Shown piece by piece: positions 5,113 through 20,161 of a stretch of 64,000 nucleotides of DNA. Within the stretch, counting starts at the first letter, position 1, and every line of letters begins with the position of its first letter. Source of the DNA: Candidatus Electrothrix communis (GTDB lineage Bacteria; Desulfobacterota; Desulfobulbia; Desulfobulbales; Desulfobulbaceae); NCBI GenBank assembly GCA_030644725.1, contig CP130629.1, positions 3,177,501-3,241,500 of the forward strand. The letters are read 5' to 3'. Under the pieces are notes generated by a model. It worked only from the letters and a program-made list of their open reading frames with translations. It had not been told where the DNA came from and did no database searches. The translations under genes and the position numbers were made by a program.

Positions 5113-8100
5113 TCATCCTCCCCTCCCACCCCCAAACCGCTTCTTCCGCTTAACCTCAGCCTGCCGCATCTGCACGGACAGACATCCCGGCCCGAAGGAC
5201 GCCTTCACCTTCTGGAAAAAATCCGAACAAGGCCGCACAGTGATATCCTTCATGGGCAGGATATCCACCTCGCCTCTTCCATCGAAATGGAGGGTCAGTT
5301 TGATCGGGGCGGAGCCGTGGAATTGATAGATCAGCTCCTTGAGTTCGATGAGCTGGTTCCGTCCGATCCTATCGGCAGGCAGACGGATCGAAGCCTGCTC
5401 GGTAAACTGCTCCACCGCCTTATCCAGCGAGTAGATGTCTTCAGCAATAATCTTTGCCCCTCGCTCTCCCTGCTGGACTGTGCCGAGGACGATAAGGGGT
5501 TCGTCTTTGCCGAGATAATGTGAGCAGCGGGCAAAGGTTTCTGGAAAGACAATCACCTCAACACTGGAACTCATATCCTCCAACACAGTAAAGGCCATGC
5601 GGTCGCCTTTTTTGGAGATATGCTCTTTGTACTGCTGGATCAGCCCGCCAACGCGGACGACCTGCCCTTCCCGCCGATTCTCCAAAGCCTCAATATCCGC
5701 ATCAGCAACCATGCGGATCGTATCAATCACCCCATCCAAGGGGTGGCCGGTCAGGAAGAAACCAATGGTCTCCTTTTCATAGGAGAGCTTTTTTAATTGC
5801 GGCCACTCGTCTATATCGGGAAATTTAATTTCAGCGCTGGGCGCACTCTCCTCCTTGCTTCCGCCCACTGCGAACAGGCTCATCTGGCCGCTCAGGCGAT
5901 CCCGCTGCACAGCCTTGGCCTGCTCAAGGGCCTGGTCCAGCACCTCCATGAGCTGGGCTCGTTTCACCTGCACAAAGTCAAAGGCTCCGGCCTTAACCAG
6001 ATTTTCCAAAACCTTCCGGTTAACCTTACTTGAGTCTATCCGACCGCAGAAATCAGCCAGCGAAGTATAAGGGCCGTTTTCCTCCCGTTCCCTGATCATG
6101 GAATCCAGGGCAGAACCACCCACATTTTTGACTGCTGCCAGTCCGAAACGAATCCGATCATTGATAACCGTGAAATCGTGATGAGACTCGTTGATATCTG
6201 GCGGCAGGACCGGGATGGACATCTGCTTGCATTCGTTGATGTACTTGACCACCTTGTCCGTGTTATCCACATCGCAGGACAGCAGGGCAGCCAGAAACTG
6301 GGCGGGATAATGGGCCTTGAGATAGGCGGTCTGGTAGGCGATCAGGGCATAGGCGGCTGAATGAGATTTATTAAAGCCGTAGCCCGCAAACTTAGCCATC
6401 AAGTCAAAGACGTAGGCCGCCTTTTCCTTGGGAATATTATTCCCCTCAGCCCCGGCCATGAATTTGCCCCGTTCTTCCTCCATGACCTCGGGAATCTTCT
6501 TACCCATAGCCCGCCGGAGAATATCCGCATCACCTAGGCTGTACGAAGCTAGAATATTGGATATCTTCATAACCTGCTCCTGGTAGACAATAACGCCGTA
6601 GGTCTCTTTCAGGACAGCTTTGATCTGGGGCAAGGGGTATTCCGGGGGACGGCGGCCATGCTTGGTCTCGACAAATTGATCCACCATACCGGAATCCAAG
6701 GGACCGGGCCGATACAGGGCCACCAGGGCGATCAGATCGGTAAACTGCTCCGGAGCCATCTTGACCAACAGCTCTCGCATACCGTCACTCTCCAGCTGAA
6801 ACACGCCCAAGCTGTTACCCGCACACAATAGATCATAGGTGCGCTGATCATCCATAGGGACTTTACTTAAATCAATCCAGGTGCCGATATCCAGCTCAAT
6901 GAGCTTCAGGGCCCGATCAATAACGGTCAGGGTCTTGAGGCCGAGAAAATCGAACTTAATCAACCCAGTCATCTCGGTGTACTTCATGTCAAACTGGGTC
7001 AGGATCTCCTTTTTGGAGCCGACACAGACCGGCAGATATTCCACCATAGCCTTGGGCGACACCACCACCCCGGCGGCATGGGTGGACTTGTGACGGGACA
7101 GGCCCTCCAGGGTCTGGGCCACCTTGAGCAACTCCCGAACAGCGGGATCCTGCTGCATGGCGTCACGGAGGCGGGGTTCCTTGTCAATGGCCTTTTTCAG
7201 GGTGATTTTTAGCTCATCTGGGACCAGCTTGGCAATCCGGTCCACCACAGGCAGAGGCACCTCTAAAACCCGACCCACGTCTCGGAGTACAGCCCGAGCC
7301 TTCATGGAACCGTAAGCCACGATCTGGGCCACATGGTCATCACCGCCGTACTTGCGGCGAACATAGTCGATCACCTCATCCCGCCGCTCCTTGCAGAAAT
7401 CCACGTCAAAGTCAGGCATGGACACCCGCTCCACGTTGAGGAAACGCTCAAAAAGCAGGCCGTAGGGAATGGGATCGATATCCGTAATGGACATGCAAAA
7501 GGCAGCCAAACTGCCTGCTCCTGATCCCCTTCCCGGACCGACCGGGATTTTCTGGCTCTTGGCCCAGTTGATAAAATCAGCCACGATGAGAAAATAACCG
7601 GAAAAACCCATTTCCTGAATAACCCCGATCTCCATTTCCAGCCGCTCTTGGTACTGTTGCTCCAGTTCCTTGGAAACTTCCTGCAGGCTGCGGAGATGCT
7701 CAAGGCGGATATCCAGGCCGTCCCGACAGGCCTTTTCAAACAGGCTTTCCAGGGATTCATTCTCCGGCACCGGGAAAATGGGAAAATGATTCTCATTGAA
7801 TTCAAGCTCAAGATTGCAGCGGTCAGCCACCTCTAGGGTATTGGCTAAGGCCTCCGGGCAATAACTGAACTGCTTGGCCATGACATCCGGCGACTTGAAA
7901 TACAGTTCATCTGTGGAAAATCTGAAACGATTGGGATCGTTAATGGTCTTGCTGGTCTGAATACAGAGCAGAACCTCATGGGCGTAGGATTCGTCCTGAT
8001 TAAGGTAATGGCAGTCATTGGTGGCCACCACTTTGATGTCCAAATCATTACCCAGCTCCAGCAACCCGTCATTGACCGTTCGCTGCTCCGGGATGCCGTT

Positions 8101-8628
8101 TTCCTGAATCTCGAAATAGAGACGGTCACCGAAAACCTTTTGCAGGTCCAAGGCCTTTTCCTTCGCTTTATCTAACCCATGATGGGTGATAGTCCAGGGA
8201 ATCTCTCCGTGCAGACAGGCGGTCAGGGCAAGCAGGCCCTCCTGATGGGCAAAAAGTAACTTGCGGTCGATGCGGGGCCTATAATAAAATCCAGCAGTCT
8301 GGGCGATGGAGGCGAGCTTCATCAGATTGCGATAGCCGGTCTCGTTCATGGCTAGGAGCACTATATGGAAATTATGACCTGCGCTCTTGTTATGAACAAG
8401 ATGATCGGTCTCCGAAATATAGAACTCACAGCCGACCAGAGGTTTGACTCCGGCCTTATTGGCCTTGGTATAGAACTCCAGAGCTCCGTACATGGCCCCG
8501 TGGTCGGTGACCGCCACAGCGTTCATGCCATAGGACTGGGTCTTATCAAGCAAATCGCCGAGGCGAATGGCCCCGTCGAGCATGGAGTATTGGGTGTGGA
8601 CATGGAGATGGACAAAGGGGGTGGACAT
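5113..8628 (-). CDS. dnaE: DNA polymerase III alpha subunit
   Basis: This is the replicative polymerase of bacterial chromosome replication. The 1171-residue length fits DnaE1. The N-terminal PHP domain opens with FVHLHVHTQYSMLDG and has AVTDHGAMYGA. The polymerase core shows PGRGSGAGSLAAF and the palm motif PDFDVDFCKERR with its catalytic aspartates. The C-terminal part carries the OB-fold (VRVGGLIQQYKEHISKKGD). The ATG at 8628 is the first Met of the conserved PHP start. A candidate promoter lies about 110 bp upstream on the same strand. Confidence 0.97.
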   Translation of the reverse strand: MSTPFVHLHVHTQYSMLDGAIRLGDLLDKTQSYGMNAVAVTDHGAMYGALEFYTKANKAGVKPLVGCEFYISETDHLVHNKSAGHNFHIVLLAMNETGYRNLMKLASIAQTAGFYYRPRIDRKLLFAHQEGLLALTACLHGEIPWTITHHGLDKAKEKALDLQKVFGDRLYFEIQENGIPEQRTVNDGLLELGNDLDIKVVATNDCHYLNQDESYAHEVLLCIQTSKTINDPNRFRFSTDELYFKSPDVMAKQFSYCPEALANTLEVADRCNLELEFNENHFPIFPVPENESLESLFEKACRDGLDIRLEHLRSLQEVSKELEQQYQERLEMEIGVIQEMGFSGYFLIVADFINWAKSQKIPVGPGRGSGAGSLAAFCMSITDIDPIPYGLLFERFLNVERVSMPDFDVDFCKERRDEVIDYVRRKYGGDDHVAQIVAYGSMKARAVLRDVGRVLEVPLPVVDRIAKLVPDELKITLKKAIDKEPRLRDAMQQDPAVRELLKVAQTLEGLSRHKSTHAAGVVVSPKAMVEYLPVCVGSKKEILTQFDMKYTEMTGLIKFDFLGLKTLTVIDRALKLIELDIGTWIDLSKVPMDDQRTYDLLCAGNSLGVFQLESDGMRELLVKMAPEQFTDLIALVALYRPGPLDSGMVDQFVETKHGRRPPEYPLPQIKAVLKETYGVIVYQEQVMKISNILASYSLGDADILRRAMGKKIPEVMEEERGKFMAGAEGNNIPKEKAAYVFDLMAKFAGYGFNKSHSAAYALIAYQTAYLKAHYPAQFLAALLSCDVDNTDKVVKYINECKQMSIPVLPPDINESHHDFTVINDRIRFGLAAVKNVGGSALDSMIREREENGPYTSLADFCGRIDSSKVNRKVLENLVKAGAFDFVQVKRAQLMEVLDQALEQAKAVQRDRLSGQMSLFAVGGSKEESAPSAEIKFPDIDEWPQLKKLSYEKETIGFFLTGHPLDGVIDTIRMVADADIEALENRREGQVVRVGGLIQQYKEHISKKGDRMAFTVLEDMSSSVEVIVFPETFARCSHYLGKDEPLIVLGTVQQGERGAKIIAEDIYSLDKAVEQFTEQASIRLPADRIGRNQLIELKELIYQFHGSAPIKLTLHFDGRGEVDILPMKDITVRPCSDFFQKVKASFGPGCLSVQMRQAEVKRKKRFGGGRGG

Positions 8629-9250
8629 ATTTTTTTCTCGTTATTCGGTGGGAAGACTCTTATTCTCGGGATGCCTCACGACGTTCTGCATCTGCTCCGA
8701 CTCAAGCCCACTACTGTTTTTTTCCGCCGTACAGTGGACCGATACAGCATAACCGCATCCTCTTCTTTGGTCAATTCGAACAGCCCTTCTCATCTGTTCG
8801 GCCCTTCCTTAAAGGAGCAACATCTGTTTCCGTACCATTTTTTCTTCGGACAAGATCTTTTACCAATAAATCCCATTAAGGACACCTTATCCCGCCGGAA
8901 AAGACAAGAAACAGGCATAACACCTTCGGCGGAGTGCTGATCTTTTCATTCTGCCGGAGCAAATTCCCAATCAACAGTTGAATACGACCTGATTATTTGC
9001 TACAAAAGAATGATGCAGATATCGCATCCAGCTGGTAATATACCGTTTTCGTTTATCGCTGCACAACAGAACCAAAAAAAAAACGTACCCAACCAACCGG
9101 TTACACTTAAAATAGCCACTCAAGAAAGAGAAAATAGTAGGCAAAACAGGCCCAGGGCCGACAGGAATCCTTTGTTAACACAACATAAACTTCGTATTAA
9201 CAACCGATAAAGGCAATTCATCATAGAATCATTCCTATCATGCACTCAAT
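8629..9250. other. 622-bp divergent intergenic region
   Basis: This gap separates dnaE (minus) from the phosphatase gene (plus). Apart from the candidate dnaE promoter I see no convincing gene, RNA or repeat. A 66-codon frame at 9010-9210 has low-complexity composition (Asn/Gln/Arg rich) and no clear ribosome-binding site, so it was not called. Confidence 0.6.
8746..8774 (-). promoter_or_regulatory. Candidate sigma-70 promoter for dnaE
   Basis: On the minus strand TTGACC (8774-8769) is followed after 17 bases by TATGCT (8751-8746). The start point would be near 8739, giving a leader of about 110 bases before dnaE. The -10 box matches the consensus at only four positions, so this is a candidate only. 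Confidence 0.35.
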
Positions 9251-12687: not shown

Positions 12688-13752
12688 TCACCGGAGTGTT
12701 TCCTGTTTTTCTCTAGAATGAGGCAGTAACAAGGTGAAGCGTGTTCCCTTTTCTATAAAACTCTGAATATCGATGGTGCCACCGAGAATAGTTACTCTTT
12801 CTCGTATGGTATTTAATCCCAGACAGCCTTTTTCTTGCCGACCGCCAGCCAAATTTGGCATGTCAAAGCCGCAACCAAAGTCGGTGATTTCAATACACAG
12901 GGAATCCGCCCTGTTGACAGTGTTAAAATTGACCTTTTTCGTACCGGAATGTTTTCCGATATTGTTTAAAATTTCCTGTAATATTCGATAAATTTGATGC
13001 TGATCGTATTTTGAAAAGTATTTCTGAACATGAATGCTGCCTAAAACGATTTCTATACCGTAATCTCGACTGAAGTTATCCAAGAATTCCTTAAGGGCCA
13101 AATCAAAGCCAAACTTTTCGATCACAACCGGCCAGAGATTTTGACAGATACTCCTGGTGCTTTCCAGCGTTTGTTGCAAAGTACTACTGATAATAGTGGC
13201 TGCTTCCTGCGTCTCCTCCCTATCATTCGACTCAAGCTGAAAGCAAAAATTATTGAACTGTAATTTCAATGCTATCAAATTTTGACCAATACCATCATGA
13301 AGCTCCATAGCAATACGTTTTCGTTCATTTTCCTGGGCGTCAATAAGTCTGGCAGAGAGACGTTTGTTTTCAAGGACAAGTAAAAAATTTTCGCTTGCCT
13401 TATCGAGAACTTGCAGCAAATCGTTCTCAACCCAAGGTTTAACGATATACTGGTAGATATGGCCCTTGTTGATTGCATCAATTATGTCAGCAACTTCCGT
13501 ATAGGCTGTTAAGACAATCCGAATTACATCCTTATTCTGTTTTTTAATATGTTGAAGCAACTCAACGCCTGTCATGCCGGGCATACGCTGGTCAGTAATA
13601 ACAATCGCAATACCGTCATTATCCTTAAAAATTTCGAGTGCTTCCCGTCCAGAGCTTGCTGTGTATATCTGATATTTTGCTCTAAAAGCAATTGTAAAAT
13701 TAGTTAAGTTGACCCTTTCATCATCAACATACAGCAGCTTTAATTTTGTCAA
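12688..13752 (-). CDS. Receiver domain fused to HisKA_3-type histidine kinase
   Basis: Residues 1-120 are a response-regulator receiver with acidic pair D10/D11, phospho-acceptor D54 in ITDQRMPGMTG and a conserved Lys in VKPW. Residues ~140-210 form a NarX/DegS-type dimerisation domain (RKRIAMELHDGIGQ, H152). The end is an HATPase domain (N box LQEILNNIGKHS, ITDFGCGFDMP, CLGLNTIRERV, GGTIDIQS). The usual order is inverted: receiver first, kinase second, with no membrane segment, so it is a cytosolic relay likely driven by the kinase encoded just upstream, which it overlaps by four bases. No output DNA-binding domain is present and no partner regulator lies nearby. Confidence 0.88.
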   Translation of the reverse strand: MTKLKLLYVDDERVNLTNFTIAFRAKYQIYTASSGREALEIFKDNDGIAIVITDQRMPGMTGVELLQHIKKQNKDVIRIVLTAYTEVADIIDAINKGHIYQYIVKPWVENDLLQVLDKASENFLLVLENKRLSARLIDAQENERKRIAMELHDGIGQNLIALKLQFNNFCFQLESNDREETQEAATIISSTLQQTLESTRSICQNLWPVVIEKFGFDLALKEFLDNFSRDYGIEIVLGSIHVQKYFSKYDQHQIYRILQEILNNIGKHSGTKKVNFNTVNRADSLCIEITDFGCGFDMPNLAGGRQEKGCLGLNTIRERVTILGGTIDIQSFIEKGTRFTLLLPHSREKQETLR

Positions 13753-15524
13753 AACGCTTCTCCTGATAACACCCTATCTTGAGATACTTCTATGGGGCTT
13801 ACCGGCAAAATAATTTCAAATACCGAACCGTTACCAATATCACTCCGCACTTTGATATCTCCACCATGCTGCCTGATAATTGAATATGATATACCAAGCC
13901 CTAGACCGGTTCCCTTGCCAACTTCTTTGTTGGTAAAAAAAGGATCGAAAATCTTTGGCATGTCATGCGCATGGATACCGCAGCCAGTGTCTGAAAAAAT
14001 GATATGAACATGTTCATTCCTCTGCTCTGTTTTGATCGTCAATTGTCCTGTCCCATCCATAGCCTGGATACCATTATTCATGATATTTAAAAATACTTGG
14101 CCCATTCGTCCCGGCAGACAATGAACGAGCGGAAGAGAGCCATAGTCACGATGAATGGTTATATTTTTCAATAATTTTTTATCAACATAATTGATCGTGG
14201 AATCAATGACTGTATGCACGTCAAGCGGGATTACTTTTTCTACATCTTCCCGTGAAAAAATTTTAAGATCACGGACGATACGAGTTGTACGCGTGGTTCC
14301 TTCTTCTATATTTTCCATGAGTTGATCGATGGTGAGAAAAATATCTTCATAAGAACATTTTTCTTTTACGACCCTTATTTCCTCAAATTTTTCATCCAGC
14401 ACATTGAATCCTCTTGATTTTTCAACTTCTTCATATCCGGTAAGAACCTCTTTCATATCATCTAAAGAGCGATGCAAAGAAGGCAGAGCCCCGGAGATAA
14501 AATTAACGGTATTATTGAGTTCATGCGCCACTCCAGCTACAAGCTGCCCCATGGCGGCAAGCTTTTCTTTCTGGATAAGTTGTTCCTGGGTTTCTTTTAA
14601 TCGCCTGAGTGCCTCAACAAGATGCGCGTTACTGCTCTTAAGTTTTTTTTGTCTCTGATAGAGCGCATCATTTGCCTTGGTGAGCTGGAGTGTTCGGCGC
14701 CTCACTTTCCCTTCAAGCCCTTCATTTAATTCACTAATGGTCCGGAATGATCTTTCAAGATCATCTACCATGTTGGTATAGGTTTCGGTCAGCACCTTCA
14801 GATCGTTAGGCTGTTCGGTTCCCTCTTCCCGCCTCCTTATTGTTAACAATAATTTTCTTAATGGTTTCGTTACATTATGCACAACAAAAAATATTGTCAA
14901 CATACTGACAAAGAAAAAGATCAGGACAGAGAAACCTATTTTAATAAAGATATTGCGCACACGTTCTTCAAAGAACTCTTTGGAAAGAACAACTGCTGCA
15001 TAGCCAACAAGCTCTTGTTCTGAGTTATTCTTTTCTTCATCAAAATACCAATCTTCTTCCTGGCTTGATGTTGCATTCAAAAAAATCTGTCCCCATAGTA
15101 TAAAACTATCCTCAGCTTCCATGCTCTGATGGCCACTCTTGTCATGTTGGTTGAGCACCGTTGGCATTTCCATGGGTTTTCCAATAACGCGTAATCTCCC
15201 GGTCAGGTCTTTCGTTTCTTGAAGAAGTACCTCCCAGTCTTTATTCCAAATAACCACCTCAAACACATCATCCAGCTCCAGCAGTCCCGACACCGGCGCA
15301 CGCATTTCATCTTTATTTTCAGTGAAAACAGCAAGCCCGATTGAATGGGCAAGCAGCTGTATAAGGATAGCCCCGTGGGCATCATAGGAAGTTCTATATG
15401 CTTTTTTCTGTATACTGATCAAGGCAATATTAAATAACGCTGCCATGCACATCATGGTCACAATCAGAAAAAGAACTATCTTGGCGCTCAAGCTCTTCGG
15501 CAAAACAAGAAAGCTGTTATTCAT
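13749..15524 (-). CDS. Membrane sensor histidine kinase (HAMP, HisKA, HATPase)
   Basis: A 591-residue kinase. A membrane helix near residues 13-35 and a second near 195-220 bracket a periplasmic sensor region, followed by HAMP and a long coiled coil. The HisKA box GQLVAGVAHELNNTVN contains the phospho-His; the HATPase has FLNIMNNGIQAM, FSDTGCGI, DPFFTNKEVGKGTGLGL and IIRQHGG. It overlaps the binding-protein gene upstream by eight bases and the receiver-kinase downstream by four, so the three form one translationally coupled unit. Confidence 0.9.
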   Translation of the reverse strand: MNNSFLVLPKSLSAKIVLFLIVTMMCMAALFNIALISIQKKAYRTSYDAHGAILIQLLAHSIGLAVFTENKDEMRAPVSGLLELDDVFEVVIWNKDWEVLLQETKDLTGRLRVIGKPMEMPTVLNQHDKSGHQSMEAEDSFILWGQIFLNATSSQEEDWYFDEEKNNSEQELVGYAAVVLSKEFFEERVRNIFIKIGFSVLIFFFVSMLTIFFVVHNVTKPLRKLLLTIRRREEGTEQPNDLKVLTETYTNMVDDLERSFRTISELNEGLEGKVRRRTLQLTKANDALYQRQKKLKSSNAHLVEALRRLKETQEQLIQKEKLAAMGQLVAGVAHELNNTVNFISGALPSLHRSLDDMKEVLTGYEEVEKSRGFNVLDEKFEEIRVVKEKCSYEDIFLTIDQLMENIEEGTTRTTRIVRDLKIFSREDVEKVIPLDVHTVIDSTINYVDKKLLKNITIHRDYGSLPLVHCLPGRMGQVFLNIMNNGIQAMDGTGQLTIKTEQRNEHVHIIFSDTGCGIHAHDMPKIFDPFFTNKEVGKGTGLGLGISYSIIRQHGGDIKVRSDIGNGSVFEIILPVSPIEVSQDRVLSGEAF

Positions 15525-16431
15525 CTGCCTCCTTCCTGTCCGCGATGGATATTCCTAACTTTGCAGTCATTGTGTGATTGATAATGGTTTTAACCGGAGG
15601 GTCAACAAGAGCTGTCTGCTCGGCCCCAACAGGATGGAACAGCATATCTATAGCCAACGCTGCAGCCTGCTTGGCCATCTCATCGGTATCGAATGTTACG
15701 GCGATTGTCGCTCCATGCGTAAGGAGTTTTTGAGAAAAAGTAAGCAGCGGAATTTTATTCCTGATTGAAAAAAGGACATAACTCTGAATGGTCATCTGAT
15801 TGGTAGCCGTGAGATCAGGCAGCATCCAGAGAAAATCCACCTTTCCACGTAAAGAATGTATTAACTCAGGAACTTCAGATATATTTTCAGTAGGCAGAGT
15901 GATAAATTCCAAGTCAGGTCTGGCCGCCTGCAACTGCTCTATAATTTTGCTGCTTCGCTTTGGGTCATAGACAAGTCCAACCCGTTTTACTTCGGGGAAG
16001 TAACGCGTCATTTCGTCCAACTGCACTTTCGGTGGCACGGACAGGCTCACTCCGGTTACAGGTCTTATCGTGTCAGTAATTGTTACCGGATGAATGACCA
16101 GTAGATGAACAACGGGAATATCAGGAACCAAGAGTGCGATTTTCAGCGCTTGGGCACCAAGGGCAAGGATCAAATCAGGGTGAATGCTTTGTATTTTACT
16201 TGCACAGCCTTCTTCATCGCCCCTAGTAATGACGACTTCCGTCATCTGGTTCGGTTGTATGGATTTTAGACCGCGCTGAGGACTACGCTTATCAAATTCA
16301 TCAATAAAAATATTTTGAATTTGCTGGTTAATTTTGCTTGTACTGCTCTTCAGTACCACTATCTCATAGCCAACGGCTCTACCTGCTAGGCTAAAAAAAG
16401 AAATAATGATAAGAAGGAGATATTTATTCAT
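15517..16431 (-). CDS. Periplasmic ABC-type substrate-binding protein (ABC_sub_bind family)
   Basis: The first ~22 residues are a signal peptide (KYLLLIIISFFSLAGRAVG). The body follows the ABC_sub_bind (DUF534-like) pattern: IQSIHPDLILALGAQA, DIPVVHLLVIHP, VKRVGLVYDP, VDFLWMLPDLTATN and GATIAVTFDTDEMAKQA. No ABC permease or ATPase genes are nearby; it is coupled to a two-component pair instead. A role as the ligand-sensing input of that kinase is inferred from the overlap with it. The ligand is unknown. Confidence 0.82.
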   Translation of the reverse strand: MNKYLLLIIISFFSLAGRAVGYEIVVLKSSTSKINQQIQNIFIDEFDKRSPQRGLKSIQPNQMTEVVITRGDEEGCASKIQSIHPDLILALGAQALKIALLVPDIPVVHLLVIHPVTITDTIRPVTGVSLSVPPKVQLDEMTRYFPEVKRVGLVYDPKRSSKIIEQLQAARPDLEFITLPTENISEVPELIHSLRGKVDFLWMLPDLTATNQMTIQSYVLFSIRNKIPLLTFSQKLLTHGATIAVTFDTDEMAKQAAALAIDMLFHPVGAEQTALVDPPVKTIINHTMTAKLGISIADRKEADE

Positions 16432-16672: not shown

Positions 16673-18586
16673 ATGAAAAATGATTACCTGCTCGCTGCCT
16701 TATTGCTCCTCACAACCTTTCTTGCAGTCCCACCTGCTCTGGCTGATAATAACACGCGTCGGGAAGACAAATTCCTGAAGGAGTGGTATATTGAAGATGA
16801 ACAGGTTGAAACGGCTACCCGCTCTCCCAAACCCATGGCTCAGGTGGCGGAAAATGTAACCATCGTTACCGCCGAAGAGATTGAGGCCATGCATGCCCAT
16901 ACCCTGGCAGAGATTCTCAACCGGCAGTCCGGGGTATTTGTCAATTTCTTTGGTCAGGATTTCCTTGGAGACTCAACTCTCCGTCTTATAGGAACTGGCC
17001 GGCACCATGTGTTACTGCTTCTTGACGGGGTGCGTTTAAACCTTAATTCAACTGGTAGCGCCTTAACTCATTTTATCCCTCTAGGTATTATCAAACGTAT
17101 TGAAATCATCAAGGGGGCCGCCTCATCTACTTGGGGCTCTGCCCTGGGTGGCGTGGTCAATATTATCACCAAGGATGTTGGTAAAAACAATAGACCAACC
17201 GGAAATGTTGATGTCAGTTATGGTGAATGGAACAGTCGTGATGTTTCAGCCGATGTGGCTGGAAAGGTGAAAGCCCTTGGCTATTATCTCTATGCTGGTA
17301 ATATTGATTCGGAGGGTCTACGCCTTGATCGCTACGCTGAAAGAAACTCCTTATACGGCAAAATACAGCTCCAATTGCCCCGCAGTTCGCGTCTGACTTT
17401 CACCGCTGGCTACAGTGATCCTTTCAATAAAAGTCTTAACTGGGAGGATGCCTGGGGGATTGCTGATCTTAATATCTATGAAGATATTGAGCATCAAAAT
17501 ATCTGGGGTACACTGTTTTTTGACACTGAAATAACACAAAATCTCTCCCTCCATCTTTCCGGTCAACATTTTAATAATACTTTTGCAATTGAAAGGTATT
17601 CCTTGGGGATTGGGCTGGGTGGACCCCAGGGTGACCTGATCTTTGGAGAAGAATGGGCGGATGAGATTAACTCCTTTATTGGTCGACTCACCTGGGCAAG
17701 AGAATCTTTTACCGCCAACCTCGGTTTTGAGTCAAGCCGTAGCGAAATGAACTATGCAAGCCGATCAGGATCCTTCTTTGAAGGACCGTCATTAACAGAA
17801 GATGAACCGGTAGCAGAGGATCGGCACGGCCTATACGCTAATCTCACATACGTTAAAGGCAATTTCTCCATTACCCCTGGCTTACGCTATGACGACCACT
17901 CCAATTCAGAGGAATCGGTAAATCCTTCCTTGGGCCTTACCTATCTGCTTTGCCCCGCTACCCTGTTCAGGGGCTCTATTGCCAAGGGGTTTTCAGCCCC
18001 TTATCTGGCTGCCTCTTCTCACTCCCCAGACCTTCAACCAGAAAATACCTGGACCTACCAAGCCGGAATAGAAACCGGTCGTATTCCCTCTCTTCACCTT
18101 AAGGGGACGATCTTTCATCAAGATATTGAAGATGCCTGGGAGTTGACTGTACCATGGATCAATACCGGCACCTCCCGTCTCAATGGTTTTGAGTTTGAGG
18201 CAAAAACTGCTTCCTACTTTGATTTAAGCCTGACCGGCAATTTTACCTATATTAAAGGGAAAAACAAAATAACTGAGAGCAACACCTGGGTTGATGATGA
18301 GACCTCTACCGGCAACCTCATTCTTACCTACTATAACACTGCATATGGCTTGAGGGCAGAACTTGCCAGCCACTATTACAGGATGAATGATCTCGTAACC
18401 AATGAAAAGCCCGAACATGGTACTTTTCTCTGGGAGGTTCTCATTGCAAAAAACTTTGATGTCTTATCCCGCAGTGGTGAAATTTACCTGAAAGGGCATA
18501 ATATCTTTAACGGGGAGCAATACTTTGATGTAGACTATCCCAACCCAGAACGATGGCTGGAAGCAGGGCTTGCTCTTAAATTTTAA
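16673..18586 (+). CDS. TonB-dependent outer-membrane receptor
   Basis: A 637-residue receptor for energised uptake across the outer membrane. Residues 1-24 are a signal peptide ending ...PPALA. The plug domain shows AENVTIVTAEEIEAM, LAEILNRQSGVF, VLLLLDGVRLN and the IEIIKGAASSTWGSALGGVVNIIT segment. The remainder has beta-barrel features (FRGSIAKGFSAPYL, LQPENTWTYQAGIETG) and ends with aromatic Phe after ALK, as barrels do. Overall it is closest in feel to BtuB/vitamin-type receptors, but no cobalamin riboswitch was seen upstream, so the substrate is open. It is followed in 84 bp by a peptide gene and a radical SAM maturase. Confidence 0.9.
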   Translation: MKNDYLLAALLLLTTFLAVPPALADNNTRREDKFLKEWYIEDEQVETATRSPKPMAQVAENVTIVTAEEIEAMHAHTLAEILNRQSGVFVNFFGQDFLGDSTLRLIGTGRHHVLLLLDGVRLNLNSTGSALTHFIPLGIIKRIEIIKGAASSTWGSALGGVVNIITKDVGKNNRPTGNVDVSYGEWNSRDVSADVAGKVKALGYYLYAGNIDSEGLRLDRYAERNSLYGKIQLQLPRSSRLTFTAGYSDPFNKSLNWEDAWGIADLNIYEDIEHQNIWGTLFFDTEITQNLSLHLSGQHFNNTFAIERYSLGIGLGGPQGDLIFGEEWADEINSFIGRLTWARESFTANLGFESSRSEMNYASRSGSFFEGPSLTEDEPVAEDRHGLYANLTYVKGNFSITPGLRYDDHSNSEESVNPSLGLTYLLCPATLFRGSIAKGFSAPYLAASSHSPDLQPENTWTYQAGIETGRIPSLHLKGTIFHQDIEDAWELTVPWINTGTSRLNGFEFEAKTASYFDLSLTGNFTYIKGKNKITESNTWVDDETSTGNLILTYYNTAYGLRAELASHYYRMNDLVTNEKPEHGTFLWEVLIAKNFDVLSRSGEIYLKGHNIFNGEQYFDVDYPNPERWLEAGLALKF

Positions 18587-18670
18587 ATTGACCTTTTCGT
18601 CTCTTATCTGTTAGGTTAAGTTGTTGTGCTAATCGCTTTACTCAACTTTACGGCCTGAAGGAGGCACAGG

Positions 18671-18769
18671 ATGAAGAAAAAATTGATCGTTCTCAAGAAA
18701 GGAAAAAATGTTAGAATCGTAGCTGCTACGGGTGATTGTTGTTCAGGTGGGCCCTCTTCTTCCAAATAA
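18671..18769 (+). CDS. Candidate RiPP precursor peptide, 32 aa
   Basis: A short ORF begins at ATG 18671 behind a strong AAGGAGG ribosome-binding site (~18657-18663) and ends at TAA 18767-18769. The N-terminal half is Lys-rich (MKKKLIVLKKGKNVRIVAAT) and looks like a leader. The C-terminal DCCSGGPSSSK holds two adjacent Cys followed by Gly-Gly-Pro and Ser and looks like a core. An intrinsic terminator follows 25 bp later and a radical SAM/SPASM protein begins 69 bp later. The setting, strong initiation signal and composition support a ribosomally made peptide modified by that enzyme. I do not recognise the family. Confidence 0.72.
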   Translation: MKKKLIVLKKGKNVRIVAATGDCCSGGPSSSK

Positions 18770-18794
18770 CGCATCAACCTATTATTTTTTATTG

Positions 18795-18819
18795 AGGAGA
18801 GCTTTGGCTCTCCTTTTTT
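18795..18819 (+). terminator. Intrinsic terminator between precursor peptide and maturase
   Basis: A perfect 8-bp stem AGGAGAGC / GCTCTCCT (18795-18802, 18807-18814) with a TTTG loop is followed by TTTTT. Placed between the peptide and maturase genes, it would leave abundant peptide mRNA and only read-through maturase mRNA, a common arrangement in RiPP operons. Confidence 0.85.
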
Positions 18820-18838
18820 ATTTCCTTTGGTAAGATAG

Positions 18839-20161
18839 ATGTATTTCACCCCCTACCTCACCGTCCACCGACATCACTCCATCCCGGATCAAGTCCTTCT
18901 TTTTTCCACCAAGACCGGCGCACTTGTCCTGTTGCCGGAAGAGGATTTTACAGCCCTGCAAAACGGGGAGACTGAAAACGACTATATTGAACCCCTCACC
19001 GACATGGGCTTTCTTGTAGAAGACGTGGAGGCAGAACACCGGGACGTTGCACAATATATGGAGGATATTAACCGCCATAACCCCAATCTGACCCTGGCAC
19101 TTATCCTGGGAATGGAATGTAACTTCGGTTGCCGCTACTGTTTTGAGGGGAAACAGAAGGGGAAGAAGACGATGGATGATCGGACGGCAGATCAGCTCAT
19201 CTCCTTTATCAAAGAGCGTTTCAAGCCCGGTAAGAAAAAGCTGATCTTACAAATCTACGGTGGCGAGCCACTCCTCTATACAAAAAGGATTATCTACCTG
19301 GCGAAGCGTTTGAAACCGTTTATTGAGGAAAGGGGAGCGAAATTTGTCTTTGATCTGATCTCCAATGGTTCCCTGCTCACGGAACAAGTGGTGGATGAGC
19401 TGAATGAATGGGGCTTGGACGGTGTCAAGGTGACCATCGACGGACCACCGGAGAACCATAATCAGTTCAGGCCGTTCAAATCAGGTGCCGGGAGTTTTGA
19501 TGTTATTGCAGGGAACCTCAAAAAGGTATGCACCAAGACAAAAATTCGCCTGGGCGGTAACTACACCAGTGAAACATACCGGAATTTTGCAACGGTCCTT
19601 GACCTGCTTTCCCAGAAAGGCATTACCCCGGATAAGGTTGAACGGGTAAACTTTAATATTGTCATGCAGGTCCGTGATAAAATTACCAGCAATGAATTCG
19701 TGGGAGGTTGCGCCACCATCAATGAACCGTGGCTGCGCGATGCCGCTCTCCATGTTCGTAAGGAGGTTTTGCAAAAGGGCTATCCCATCGGAGAACTCGG
19801 CCCGGAACCCTGTGCCGTTGAGATGGATGATGCCTTTACCATTCATTACAACGGTAGCCTCTATAAATGCGTTTGCTGGGTGGGTCACGAACAGTATAAA
19901 ATAGGCGATATCTGGCAGGGTGTTACCGAAAACGTCCAGGAGTCCCACCATCTCTTTCACTGGCAACGGGAAGAAAAATGTCAAAAATGCAAATACCTGC
20001 CTCTCTGCTTCGGAGGCTGCCGCTATATGGCCTATCAACGCGACGGTCATATGGGGCAGGTGGATTGCCGGAAACCCTTTCTCGATGCCACCCTGGAAAC
20101 CATGCTCTTGCAGGATCTCCAGTATCTCCACGGGCAAATAAGCGAGTGCTCACCCGGCTAG
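18839..20161 (+). CDS. Radical SAM/SPASM peptide maturase
   Basis: A 440-residue enzyme. Residues 1-85 are a leader-binding-like N-terminal region (LLFSTKTGALVLLPEEDF). The radical SAM core carries the CxxxCxxC cluster motif C94-C98-C101 in ECNFGCRYCFEG, then IYGGEPLL and LISNGSLLTEQVVDEL. The C-terminal SPASM region has NGSLYKCVCW, CQKCKYLPLCFGGC and VDC, enough Cys for two auxiliary clusters. Such enzymes install thioether or C-C crosslinks in RiPPs. The N-terminal pattern recalls geopeptide-type maturases, from memory only. No protease or exporter gene follows; the next gene is on the opposite strand. Confidence 0.9.
   Translation: MYFTPYLTVHRHHSIPDQVLLFSTKTGALVLLPEEDFTALQNGETENDYIEPLTDMGFLVEDVEAEHRDVAQYMEDINRHNPNLTLALILGMECNFGCRYCFEGKQKGKKTMDDRTADQLISFIKERFKPGKKKLILQIYGGEPLLYTKRIIYLAKRLKPFIEERGAKFVFDLISNGSLLTEQVVDELNEWGLDGVKVTIDGPPENHNQFRPFKSGAGSFDVIAGNLKKVCTKTKIRLGGNYTSETYRNFATVLDLLSQKGITPDKVERVNFNIVMQVRDKITSNEFVGGCATINEPWLRDAALHVRKEVLQKGYPIGELGPEPCAVEMDDAFTIHYNGSLYKCVCWVGHEQYKIGDIWQGVTENVQESHHLFHWQREEKCQKCKYLPLCFGGCRYMAYQRDGHMGQVDCRKPFLDATLETMLLQDLQYLHGQISECSPG

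What the first reader, a model, noticed from the sequence alone, without database searches (positions are those of the whole stretch)
18671..20161. Unannotated 32-residue RiPP precursor with terminator and radical SAM/SPASM maturase
A tiny gene with AAGGAGG initiation, a basic leader and a DCCSGGPSSSK tail precedes a perfect terminator and a SPASM maturase. The vicinal Cys-Cys followed by Ser-Gly-Gly-Pro is an unusual core; thioether formation or Cys modification is possible. No protease or exporter is adjacent. This is a strong candidate for an undescribed peptide family.
Basis: partly seen in the sequence, partly recalled or inferred. Interest (0 to 1): 0.8.

Follow-up and report, generated by a model that had tools for sequence, protein, structure and literature searches.

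The report
Modified-peptide system with private outer-membrane receptor
A cable bacterium carries a tiny gene for a two-cysteine peptide beside the enzyme predicted to modify it; in its relatives the pair regularly comes with a dedicated outer-membrane uptake receptor and a sensor, which suggests that the finished peptide is released and taken back in, perhaps carrying a nutrient such as a metal.

Summary
A 32-aa ORF (18671-18769, AAGGAGG) lies before a terminator-like hairpin and a radical SAM/SPASM maturase (18839-20161). The maturase is NCBIfam TIGR04280 'geopeptide radical SAM maturase' (480.9 bits, cut-off 400), so the family has a name, but the curated precursor model TIGR04229 misses this peptide. 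A CC peptide lies near 53 of 55 over-cut-off maturases from two genome samples; at the other two the contig ends. It is under purifying selection. The maturase has a predicted RRE and a CteB-like fold.

A TonB-dependent receptor lies beside 52 of 55 maturases (37 of 37 with at least 6 kb upstream); a PF04392 binding protein (36 of 37) and a histidine kinase (35 of 37) lie near. The receptors form one clade that tracks the maturase across genomes: 26 of 26 with, 1 of 271 without, at a threshold set afterwards. One genome keeps receptor and sensor with only a maturase stub.

Best reading: a released RiPP, retrieved and sensed, methanobactin-like in logic. Chemistry and ligand are inferred.

The parts
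18671..18769 (+). 32-aa geopeptide-like RiPP precursor; leader with IVLKKG, core around CCSGGPSSSK
   Evidence: ORF; purifying selection; homologues at 53 of 55 over-cut-off maturases
18658..18664 (+). Shine-Dalgarno AAGGAGG of the precursor
   Evidence: sequence
18794..18815 (+). terminator-like hairpin between precursor and maturase (probable attenuator giving more precursor than enzyme; inferred)
   Evidence: a terminator-like site in 20 of 43 gaps
18839..20161 (+). geopeptide radical SAM/SPASM maturase (TIGR04280)
   Evidence: 480.9 bits against cut-off 400; predicted fold nearest CteB, Z 29.0
18839..19093 (+). predicted N-terminal RRE (leader-binding) domain of the maturase, residues 1-85
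   Evidence: model pLDDT 90.6; best matches TigE N-terminus Z 7.5, TbiB1-leader complex 6.7, lasso B1 6.1
16673..18586 (+). TonB-dependent outer-membrane receptor of the geopeptide-linked clade
   Evidence: Pfam Plug and barrel; homologue beside 52 of 55 maturases; one clade; co-occurrence
15517..16431 (-). binding protein, PF04392 (ABC_sub_bind), divergent from the receptor
   Evidence: Pfam; 36 of 37 loci with enough flank; co-occurrence
13749..15524 (-). sensor histidine kinase, overlapping the end of the binding-protein gene
   Evidence: Pfam HATPase_c; a related kinase near 35 of 37 maturases with enough flank, (no background rate measured)
12691..13752 (-). response-regulator/histidine-kinase hybrid next to the kinase
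   Evidence: Pfam Response_reg, HisKA_3, HATPase_c

Best explanation
The locus makes a small RiPP and takes it back in. The maturase's RRE grips the IVLxxG leader; its radical SAM centre and SPASM clusters modify the two adjacent cysteines, most likely as thioether(s); the product, roughly CC plus the next eight residues up to a basic residue, leaves the cell by a generic route, picks up or is itself a scarce ligand (most likely a soft metal or a metal complex), is re-imported through its private TonB-dependent receptor, and is reported by the binding protein and the histidine-kinase relay. Shown by comparison: the precursor-maturase pairing and the pairing with this receptor clade. Strongly suggested: pairing with the binding protein. 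Suggested: the kinase and the RRE. Inferred: the thioether chemistry, the ends of the mature peptide, its export, its identity as the receptor's ligand, and the metal.
For: Precursor: CC peptide at 53 of 55 over-cut-off maturases, the other two at contig ends; pN far below pS; K/R at +8 after CC in 42 of 58 peptides, shuffle mean 8.3, maximum 18 in 10,000. Enzyme: TIGR04280; the next-best NCBIfam models include the Cys-every-fifth CefB, rSAM_vs_C_rich (TIGR04463) and PapB maturases; fold nearest CteB, Z 29.0 over 385 residues; ten cluster-binding Cys invariant in 47 sequences; RRE-like fold. Receptor: within 6 kb of 52 of 55, and of 37 of 37 with at least 6 kb upstream, against 8 receptor genes in the 4.85 Mb own genome; the pairing survives changes of gene order (41 same strand upstream, 9 opposite strand upstream, 2 opposite strand downstream); one clade against 24 other receptors, SH-aLRT 100; co-occurrence 26 of 27 genomes with against 3 of 69 without an over-cut-off maturase, those 3 having partial or sub-cut-off matches, and 26 of 26 against 6 of 271 at E 1e-80 in a phylum sample, or 1 of 271 in the clade's own score range. 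Two-copy genomes G190, G223, G243 and G115 have a receptor at each copy. G095 keeps receptor, binding protein and kinase with only a 141-aa maturase stub, and no CC precursor was found there, as expected if the ligand can come from others.
Against: No exporter or protease among the scanned window neighbours. The precursor tail does not vary with the receptor once maturase distance is allowed for (partial correlation 0.05, p 0.22, n 43), while it does follow the maturase (0.24, p 0.002), so recognition of the core by the receptor is unsupported. No convincing Fur box in the window's divergent gap and no Rfam match in the window or seven loci, so nothing points to a given metal. The clade's best matches among solved structures are Cir, BtuB and PirA, which do not name a ligand. 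The own genome has another binding-protein/receptor pair in a stretch where I saw no maturase. Six genomes with sub-cut-off maturase matches have no receptor match at E 1e-80. Histidine kinases are common, and no background was measured for the kinase.
Confidence: 0.45

Rival explanations
1. Signal rather than carrier: the modified peptide is a pheromone-like cue, imported by the receptor and read by the binding protein and kinases, without carrying a nutrient.
For: Binding protein and kinase near 36 and 35 of 37 maturases with enough flank; apart from maturase, receptor, kinase/regulator and binding protein, no gene family recurs in more than 7 of 66 loci, so no permease is a constant partner; paralogous copies with different cores in one genome (G190, G223, G243, G115).
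Against: TonB-dependent uptake is costly for a mere signal (recalled); the core does not covary with the receptor.
Confidence: 0.2
2. The receptor and sensor take up and sense an unrelated outside nutrient (for example a corrinoid, haem or siderophore), and the geopeptide is an intracellular or periplasmic product, such as a redox cofactor or metal buffer, made in the same response.
For: The receptor's best NCBIfam hit is the B12 receptor model, though far below its cut-off (121.8 against 599.7); no exporter or leader protease among scanned neighbours; no receptor-core covariation.
Against: Receptor clade nearly absent from genomes without the maturase; no cobalamin riboswitch found in the window or in seven related loci.
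Confidence: 0.22
3. A peptide antibiotic (microcin-like) whose entry route or immunity involves the receptor.
For: Variable tail behind a leader with a recurring motif; TonB-dependent receptors are known entry routes of microcins and colicins (recalled).
Against: No further gene family, so no immunity or export gene, recurs in more than 7 of 66 loci; the same gene content recurs across a phylum sample, unlike typical bacteriocin loci (recalled).
Confidence: 0.08
4. A chance ORF: the small reading frame is part of the maturase mRNA leader and not a substrate.
For: It is only 32 codons and matches no curated model above cut-off.
Against: pS 0.62 against pN 0.19; homologues at 53 of 55 maturases; profile-profile match to the group that TIGR04229 partly recognises, probability 94.9.
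Confidence: 0.02

Closest known systems
Geopeptide / geopeptide radical SAM maturase (NCBIfam TIGR04229 / TIGR04280)
   Same: The maturase passes the curated TIGR04280 cut-off. In G290 a peptide that TIGR04229 scores 29.4 against its cut-off 30 (L045) sits in the same place beside a 679-bit TIGR04280 maturase, and its group aligns with the window's group (hhalign probability 94.9).
   Different: The window peptide is missed by TIGR04229, as are four tested relatives; no paper naming geopeptide, TIGR04229 or TIGR04280 is in the searched library.
CteB (SCIFF maturase) and PapB (ranthipeptide maturase); roles recalled
   Same: RRE plus radical SAM plus SPASM fold; CteB is the nearest solved structure (5why, Z 29.0); Cys is the expected target.
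   Different: Scores far below the curated cut-offs (PapB 138.5 against 340, SCIFF 103.3 against 425); two adjacent Cys; no invariant acceptor residue among 58 precursors.
Methanobactin operons (copper-binding RiPP)
   Same: RiPP precursor, modifying enzyme, commonly a TonB-dependent receptor, and in some operons periplasmic binding proteins (PMC3621798, passages and section 11 read).
   Different: Enzyme is radical SAM/SPASM, not MbnB; sensor is a histidine-kinase relay, not FecIR-like; no MATE exporter among scanned neighbours; no copper evidence.
BtuB/Cir-type TonB-dependent receptors
   Same: Plug and barrel; Cir, BtuB and PirA are among the best solved-structure matches of the clade profile.
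   Different: A clade apart from 24 other receptors, far below the BtuB equivalog cut-off.

Membership tests
Geopeptide radical SAM maturase (TIGR04280) | whole-protein score above the curated cut-off of 400 bits | tested here: met
   480.9 bits over 1-429
Geopeptide precursor (TIGR04229) | score above the curated cut-off of 30 bits | tested here: not met
   no match for the window peptide and none at this place in the own genome; described therefore as a homologue outside the model, on position and profile-profile match
RRE-dependent radical SAM RiPP system | RRE fold in the maturase | tested here: met
   predicted model only; the leading rows are RiPP proteins with leader-binding domains: TigE, TbiB1, lasso B1, ThcOx, CteB, McbB, SuiB, best Z 7.5; Foldseek E 0.011 at best
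RRE-dependent radical SAM RiPP system | radical SAM CX3CX2C and seven-Cys SPASM motif | tested here: met
   C94, C98, C101 and C325, C344, C381, C384, C390, C394, C410 invariant in 47 sequences; TIGR04085 57.4 bits against 27; Pfam SPASM 16.0, below 21.5
Ranthipeptide / sactipeptide | thioether link between Cys sulfur and a carbon of another residue | not testable with these tools
   needs mass spectrometry of co-expressed peptide
PapB-type ranthipeptide maturase (NF047865) | score above the curated cut-off of 340 | tested here: not met
   138.5 bits
SCIFF maturase (TIGR03974) | score above the curated cut-off of 425 | tested here: not met
   103.3 bits
Methanobactin | MbnB-type modifying enzyme beside the precursor | tested here: not met
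   the enzyme beside the precursor is radical SAM; the scanned window neighbours are of other families; the rest of the genome was not searched for MbnB
Methanobactin | TonB-dependent receptor in the locus | tested here: met
Vitamin B12 receptor BtuB (TIGR01779) | score above the curated cut-off of 599.7 | tested here: not met
   121.8 bits
TonB-dependent siderophore receptor (TIGR01783) | score above the curated cut-off of 223.5 | tested here: not met
   113.1 bits

The most novel reading that the evidence does not exclude
Geopeptides are a phylum-wide class of radical-SAM-made metallophores or ligand carriers: short two-cysteine peptides that are released, loaded and retrieved through a private clade of TonB-dependent receptors and monitored by a binding-protein/histidine-kinase relay, so that uptake-based RiPPs exist beyond methanobactin-type chemistry, and some genomes keep only the receptor and sensor and live off others' product.
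Probability: 0.35. Interest if true: 0.85.

Novelty: new variant of a known kind. Interest (0 to 1): 0.62.

Why it matters
TIGR04280 is a curated maturase family, but no paper in the searched open-licence library names it, TIGR04229 or geopeptides. The receptor and sensor give it a testable function: uptake. If the peptide is the receptor's ligand, this is a radical SAM RiPP made to be re-imported, in cable bacteria and other members of their phylum for which trace-metal supply may matter. A paper on nickel in cable bacteria reports several TonB-dependent transporters per genome, none related to known nickel transporters (PMC11247825, passages read). The work also shows that the curated precursor model misses most of the precursors gathered here: 11 of 58 match even at E 0.1.

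Tried and rejected
Chance ORF: rejected. Receptor-core coevolution: partial Mantel test negative (tail with receptor given maturase 0.05, p 0.22; tail with maturase given receptor 0.24, p 0.002; leader with receptor given maturase 0.11, p 0.10; leader with maturase given receptor 0.30, p 0.002; 43 loci). Fur boxes in 31 divergent gaps: the window's best match (12 of 19) is no better than its shuffles (mean 11.8); of the 31, L050 (15 of 19) alone exceeded the maximum of its 50 shuffles (13). Rfam at gathering thresholds: nothing in the window or in seven of the fetched loci. Promoter-like sites: not above chance. PHROGs: for the peptide nothing, for the maturase radical SAM, Fe-S or unnamed families. 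Exporter: none among scanned window neighbours; one MFS gene family lies at L124, L125, L129, L130 and L132 (two of the five scanned, PF07690 and PF05977); neighbours of the other loci were clustered, not scanned for exporters. Papers: mycofactocin in Geobacter (PMC3023750, passages), RiPP mining in anaerobes (PMC4289311, 12 of 13 passages), two radical SAM RiPP reviews (PMC8326336, PMC5682303, term searches without a hit), RRE-Finder (PMC7470986, passages); the wider word searches were seen as capped listings only and prove no absence.

Limits. Precursors of L015, L117 and L120 were found only with CC in the pattern, and the profile weighs CC heavily, so 'CC in all' is partly by selection, which found 26 of the first 27, only one Cys and a ribosome-binding site were required, though where several ORFs passed I chose the CC one. 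Left out of the set of 58: L009 and L026 (same as L059), L011 and L042 (same as L074), and candidates at sub-cut-off loci L134, L135 and L136. One search's gene calls were greedy and missed receptors hidden by antisense ORFs (L061, L125, L132); tblastn put this right. Fisher p-values ignore shared ancestry; 15 of the 20 rows of the receptor profile A6 come from genomes counted and 4 from genomes counted; the clade's score range (493 bits and up) was drawn after seeing the scores. The tree is a quick search. Shuffles were mononucleotide, and 43 gaps of 58 precursors could be measured.

Full report
What was checked. The window contains, on the + strand, a 32-codon ORF at 18671-18769 with AAGGAGG six bases before its ATG, a 9-pair hairpin followed by T's at 18794-18815, and a 440-codon ORF at 18839-20161.

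Where it is. The window lies at 3177501-3241500 of a 4,845,585-bp single-contig genome. A named contig of Candidatus Electrothrix aarhusensis (L009, 43,710 bp) has the same length as contig C70 of G004, which is listed as the same genus as the window, and its receptor is identical to that of G004. I infer that the window is from a cable bacterium, Ca. Electrothrix.

The enzyme. The maturase scores 480.9 bits against NCBIfam TIGR04280 (cut-off 400), 'geopeptide radical SAM maturase'; the other maturase models among the 25 shown are far below their cut-offs. An alignment of 47 relatives keeps the CX3CX2C of radical SAM and seven SPASM cysteines without exception. The predicted structure (mean pLDDT 93.2) matches CteB best (5why, Z 29.0, rmsd 4.5, 385 residues, model residues 4-428). 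Residues 1-85 predicted alone (pLDDT 90.6) match TigE, TbiB1 with leader, a lasso B1, ThcOx, CteB, McbB and SuiB as the leading rows, proteins with RREs or RRE-like domains (recalled); each Z is below 8 and Foldseek's best E is 0.011, so the RRE rests on the agreement of the list, not on one score.

The peptide. It matches no NCBIfam family and nothing in Pfam above cut-off. The partner model TIGR04229 finds 3 of 297 phylum genomes at E 0.01, none above its cut-off, while TIGR04280 is above cut-off in 26 of 297 of the same draw. Of 58 precursors gathered here, 11 match TIGR04229 at E 0.1. Yet a peptide of this kind lies near 53 of 55 over-cut-off maturases (27 from 96 relatives, 28 more from the phylum sample); at the other two (L129, L130) the contig ends 1.6 and 0.8 kb upstream. 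In L124 and L128 it lies about 1.7 kb upstream, and in L125 on the opposite strand. The window's group aligns by profile with the Geobacter-type group (probability 94.9, E 4.5e-8 for that single comparison). Within six close relatives pS is 0.62 and pN 0.19 in frame, with no such difference out of frame. Across the 58: CC in all (partly by selection, see Tried and rejected), a [VIL][LIVF]xx[GPA] motif before CC in 57, A or G five residues before CC in 45, and K or R eight residues after CC in 42, against a shuffle mean of 8.3 and maximum of 18 in 10,000. In 22 of 31 peptides with longer tails the K/R is still at +8, which hints at a fixed core of CC plus eight residues; that is inference.

The attenuator. 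A terminator-like hairpin lies between precursor and maturase in 20 of 43 measurable gaps, against 1.4 expected from simple shuffles. This would give more precursor than enzyme (inference).

The receptor. Directly upstream of the peptide is a TonB-dependent receptor (16673-18586). By tblastn, a homologue lies within 6 kb of 52 of 55 maturases; the three misses (L124, L129, L130) have 1.8, 1.6 and 0.8 kb of upstream sequence. Among the 37 with at least 6 kb upstream the counts are receptor 37 (within 6 kb), PF04392 binding protein 36 and histidine kinase 35 (within 9 kb). The kinase count has no background and kinases are common. The own genome holds 8 receptor genes, so about 1.7% of positions lie within 5 kb of one; eight other genomes hold 37 in all, G119 only the linked one. 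The receptor is on the maturase's strand upstream in 41, on the opposite strand upstream in 9 and on the opposite strand downstream in 2, so the pairing outlives changes of gene order. In a tree of 54 linked and 24 other receptors the linked ones are one side of a branch with support 100.

Co-occurrence. A profile of the linked receptors at E 1e-100 finds 29 of 96 relatives: 26 of the 27 genomes with an over-cut-off maturase and 3 of the 69 others. The one miss, G013, has a receptor fragment at a contig end (L068); the three extras, G065, G086 and G095, have maturase matches that are split by contig ends, sub-cut-off or a remnant. In the phylum sample at E 1e-80 it finds 32 of 297: all 26 with an over-cut-off maturase and 6 of 271 others, of which G188 and G253 carry sub-cut-off maturase matches; among the six only G244 scores in the clade's range (653 bits; the rest 276-427). 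A binding-protein profile gives 29 of 96 at 248 bits or more: 25 of the 27 maturase genomes, and G063, G065, G086, G095 besides. These counts ignore shared ancestry.

A receptor-only locus. In G095 (2 contigs, 100% complete) the receptor (636 aa), the binding protein (301 aa) and a kinase (601 aa) are open reading frames of normal length, and 149 bp behind the receptor stands only the C-terminal part of a maturase; no CC precursor was found. Receptor without producer is what users of a shared product look like, but one case of recent decay cannot be excluded.

How it most likely works. Leader held by the RRE, cysteines modified by the radical SAM enzyme, product released, retrieved by the receptor, reported by the binding protein and kinase. 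The precursor-maturase and receptor pairings are shown by comparison; chemistry, export, ligand identity and metal are inferred. The nearest functional parallel is methanobactin, whose operons commonly hold a TonB-dependent receptor and sometimes periplasmic binding proteins (PMC3621798, passages and section 11). The block is not a methanobactin locus: its enzyme is radical SAM.

Results against this reading. No exporter or protease among the scanned window neighbours. The precursor tail follows the maturase, not the receptor, in a partial Mantel test on 43 loci. No convincing metal-regulator site in the window and no Rfam match. The own genome has another binding-protein/receptor pair where I saw no maturase. 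Genomes with sub-cut-off maturase matches G106, G117, G125, G142, G174 and G178 have no receptor match at E 1e-80.

Print. No paper in the searched open-licence library holds geopeptide, geo-peptide, TIGR04280 or TIGR04229, and none holds TonB-dependent receptor, radical SAM, SPASM, RiPP and Geobacter together. Subscription papers are not held, so absence from print is not shown.

Verdict.

Noticed in passing
L078 (G095:C1:2646000-2664000), 6686-9155: Full-length receptor, with binding protein and kinase, but only a 141-aa C-terminal maturase remnant and no CC precursor found: a natural receptor-only locus.
   Followed up: yes
L137 8831-12034 (G000:C1 about 1.199-1.202 Mb): A second PF04392 binding protein directly before a TonB-dependent receptor in the own genome, no maturase seen beside it; this receptor falls outside the linked clade.
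   Followed up: partly
G000:C1:3627856-3680257: Six of the own genome's eight TonB-dependent receptors lie within about 52 kb.
   Followed up: no
L132 9245-9564: Two geopeptide precursors in tandem before one maturase.
   Followed up: no
L124, L125, L129, L130, L132: An MFS transporter family (PF07690/PF05977; two of the five scanned) near the geopeptide genes in this group, a possible exporter.
   Followed up: partly
G073:C49 (L061); binding proteins of G049, G060 and G064: Receptor with one in-frame stop, and binding-protein matches with one stop inside, in otherwise conserved systems.
   Followed up: no
L069 and L074: Two receptors of the linked clade near one geopeptide maturase.
   Followed up: no
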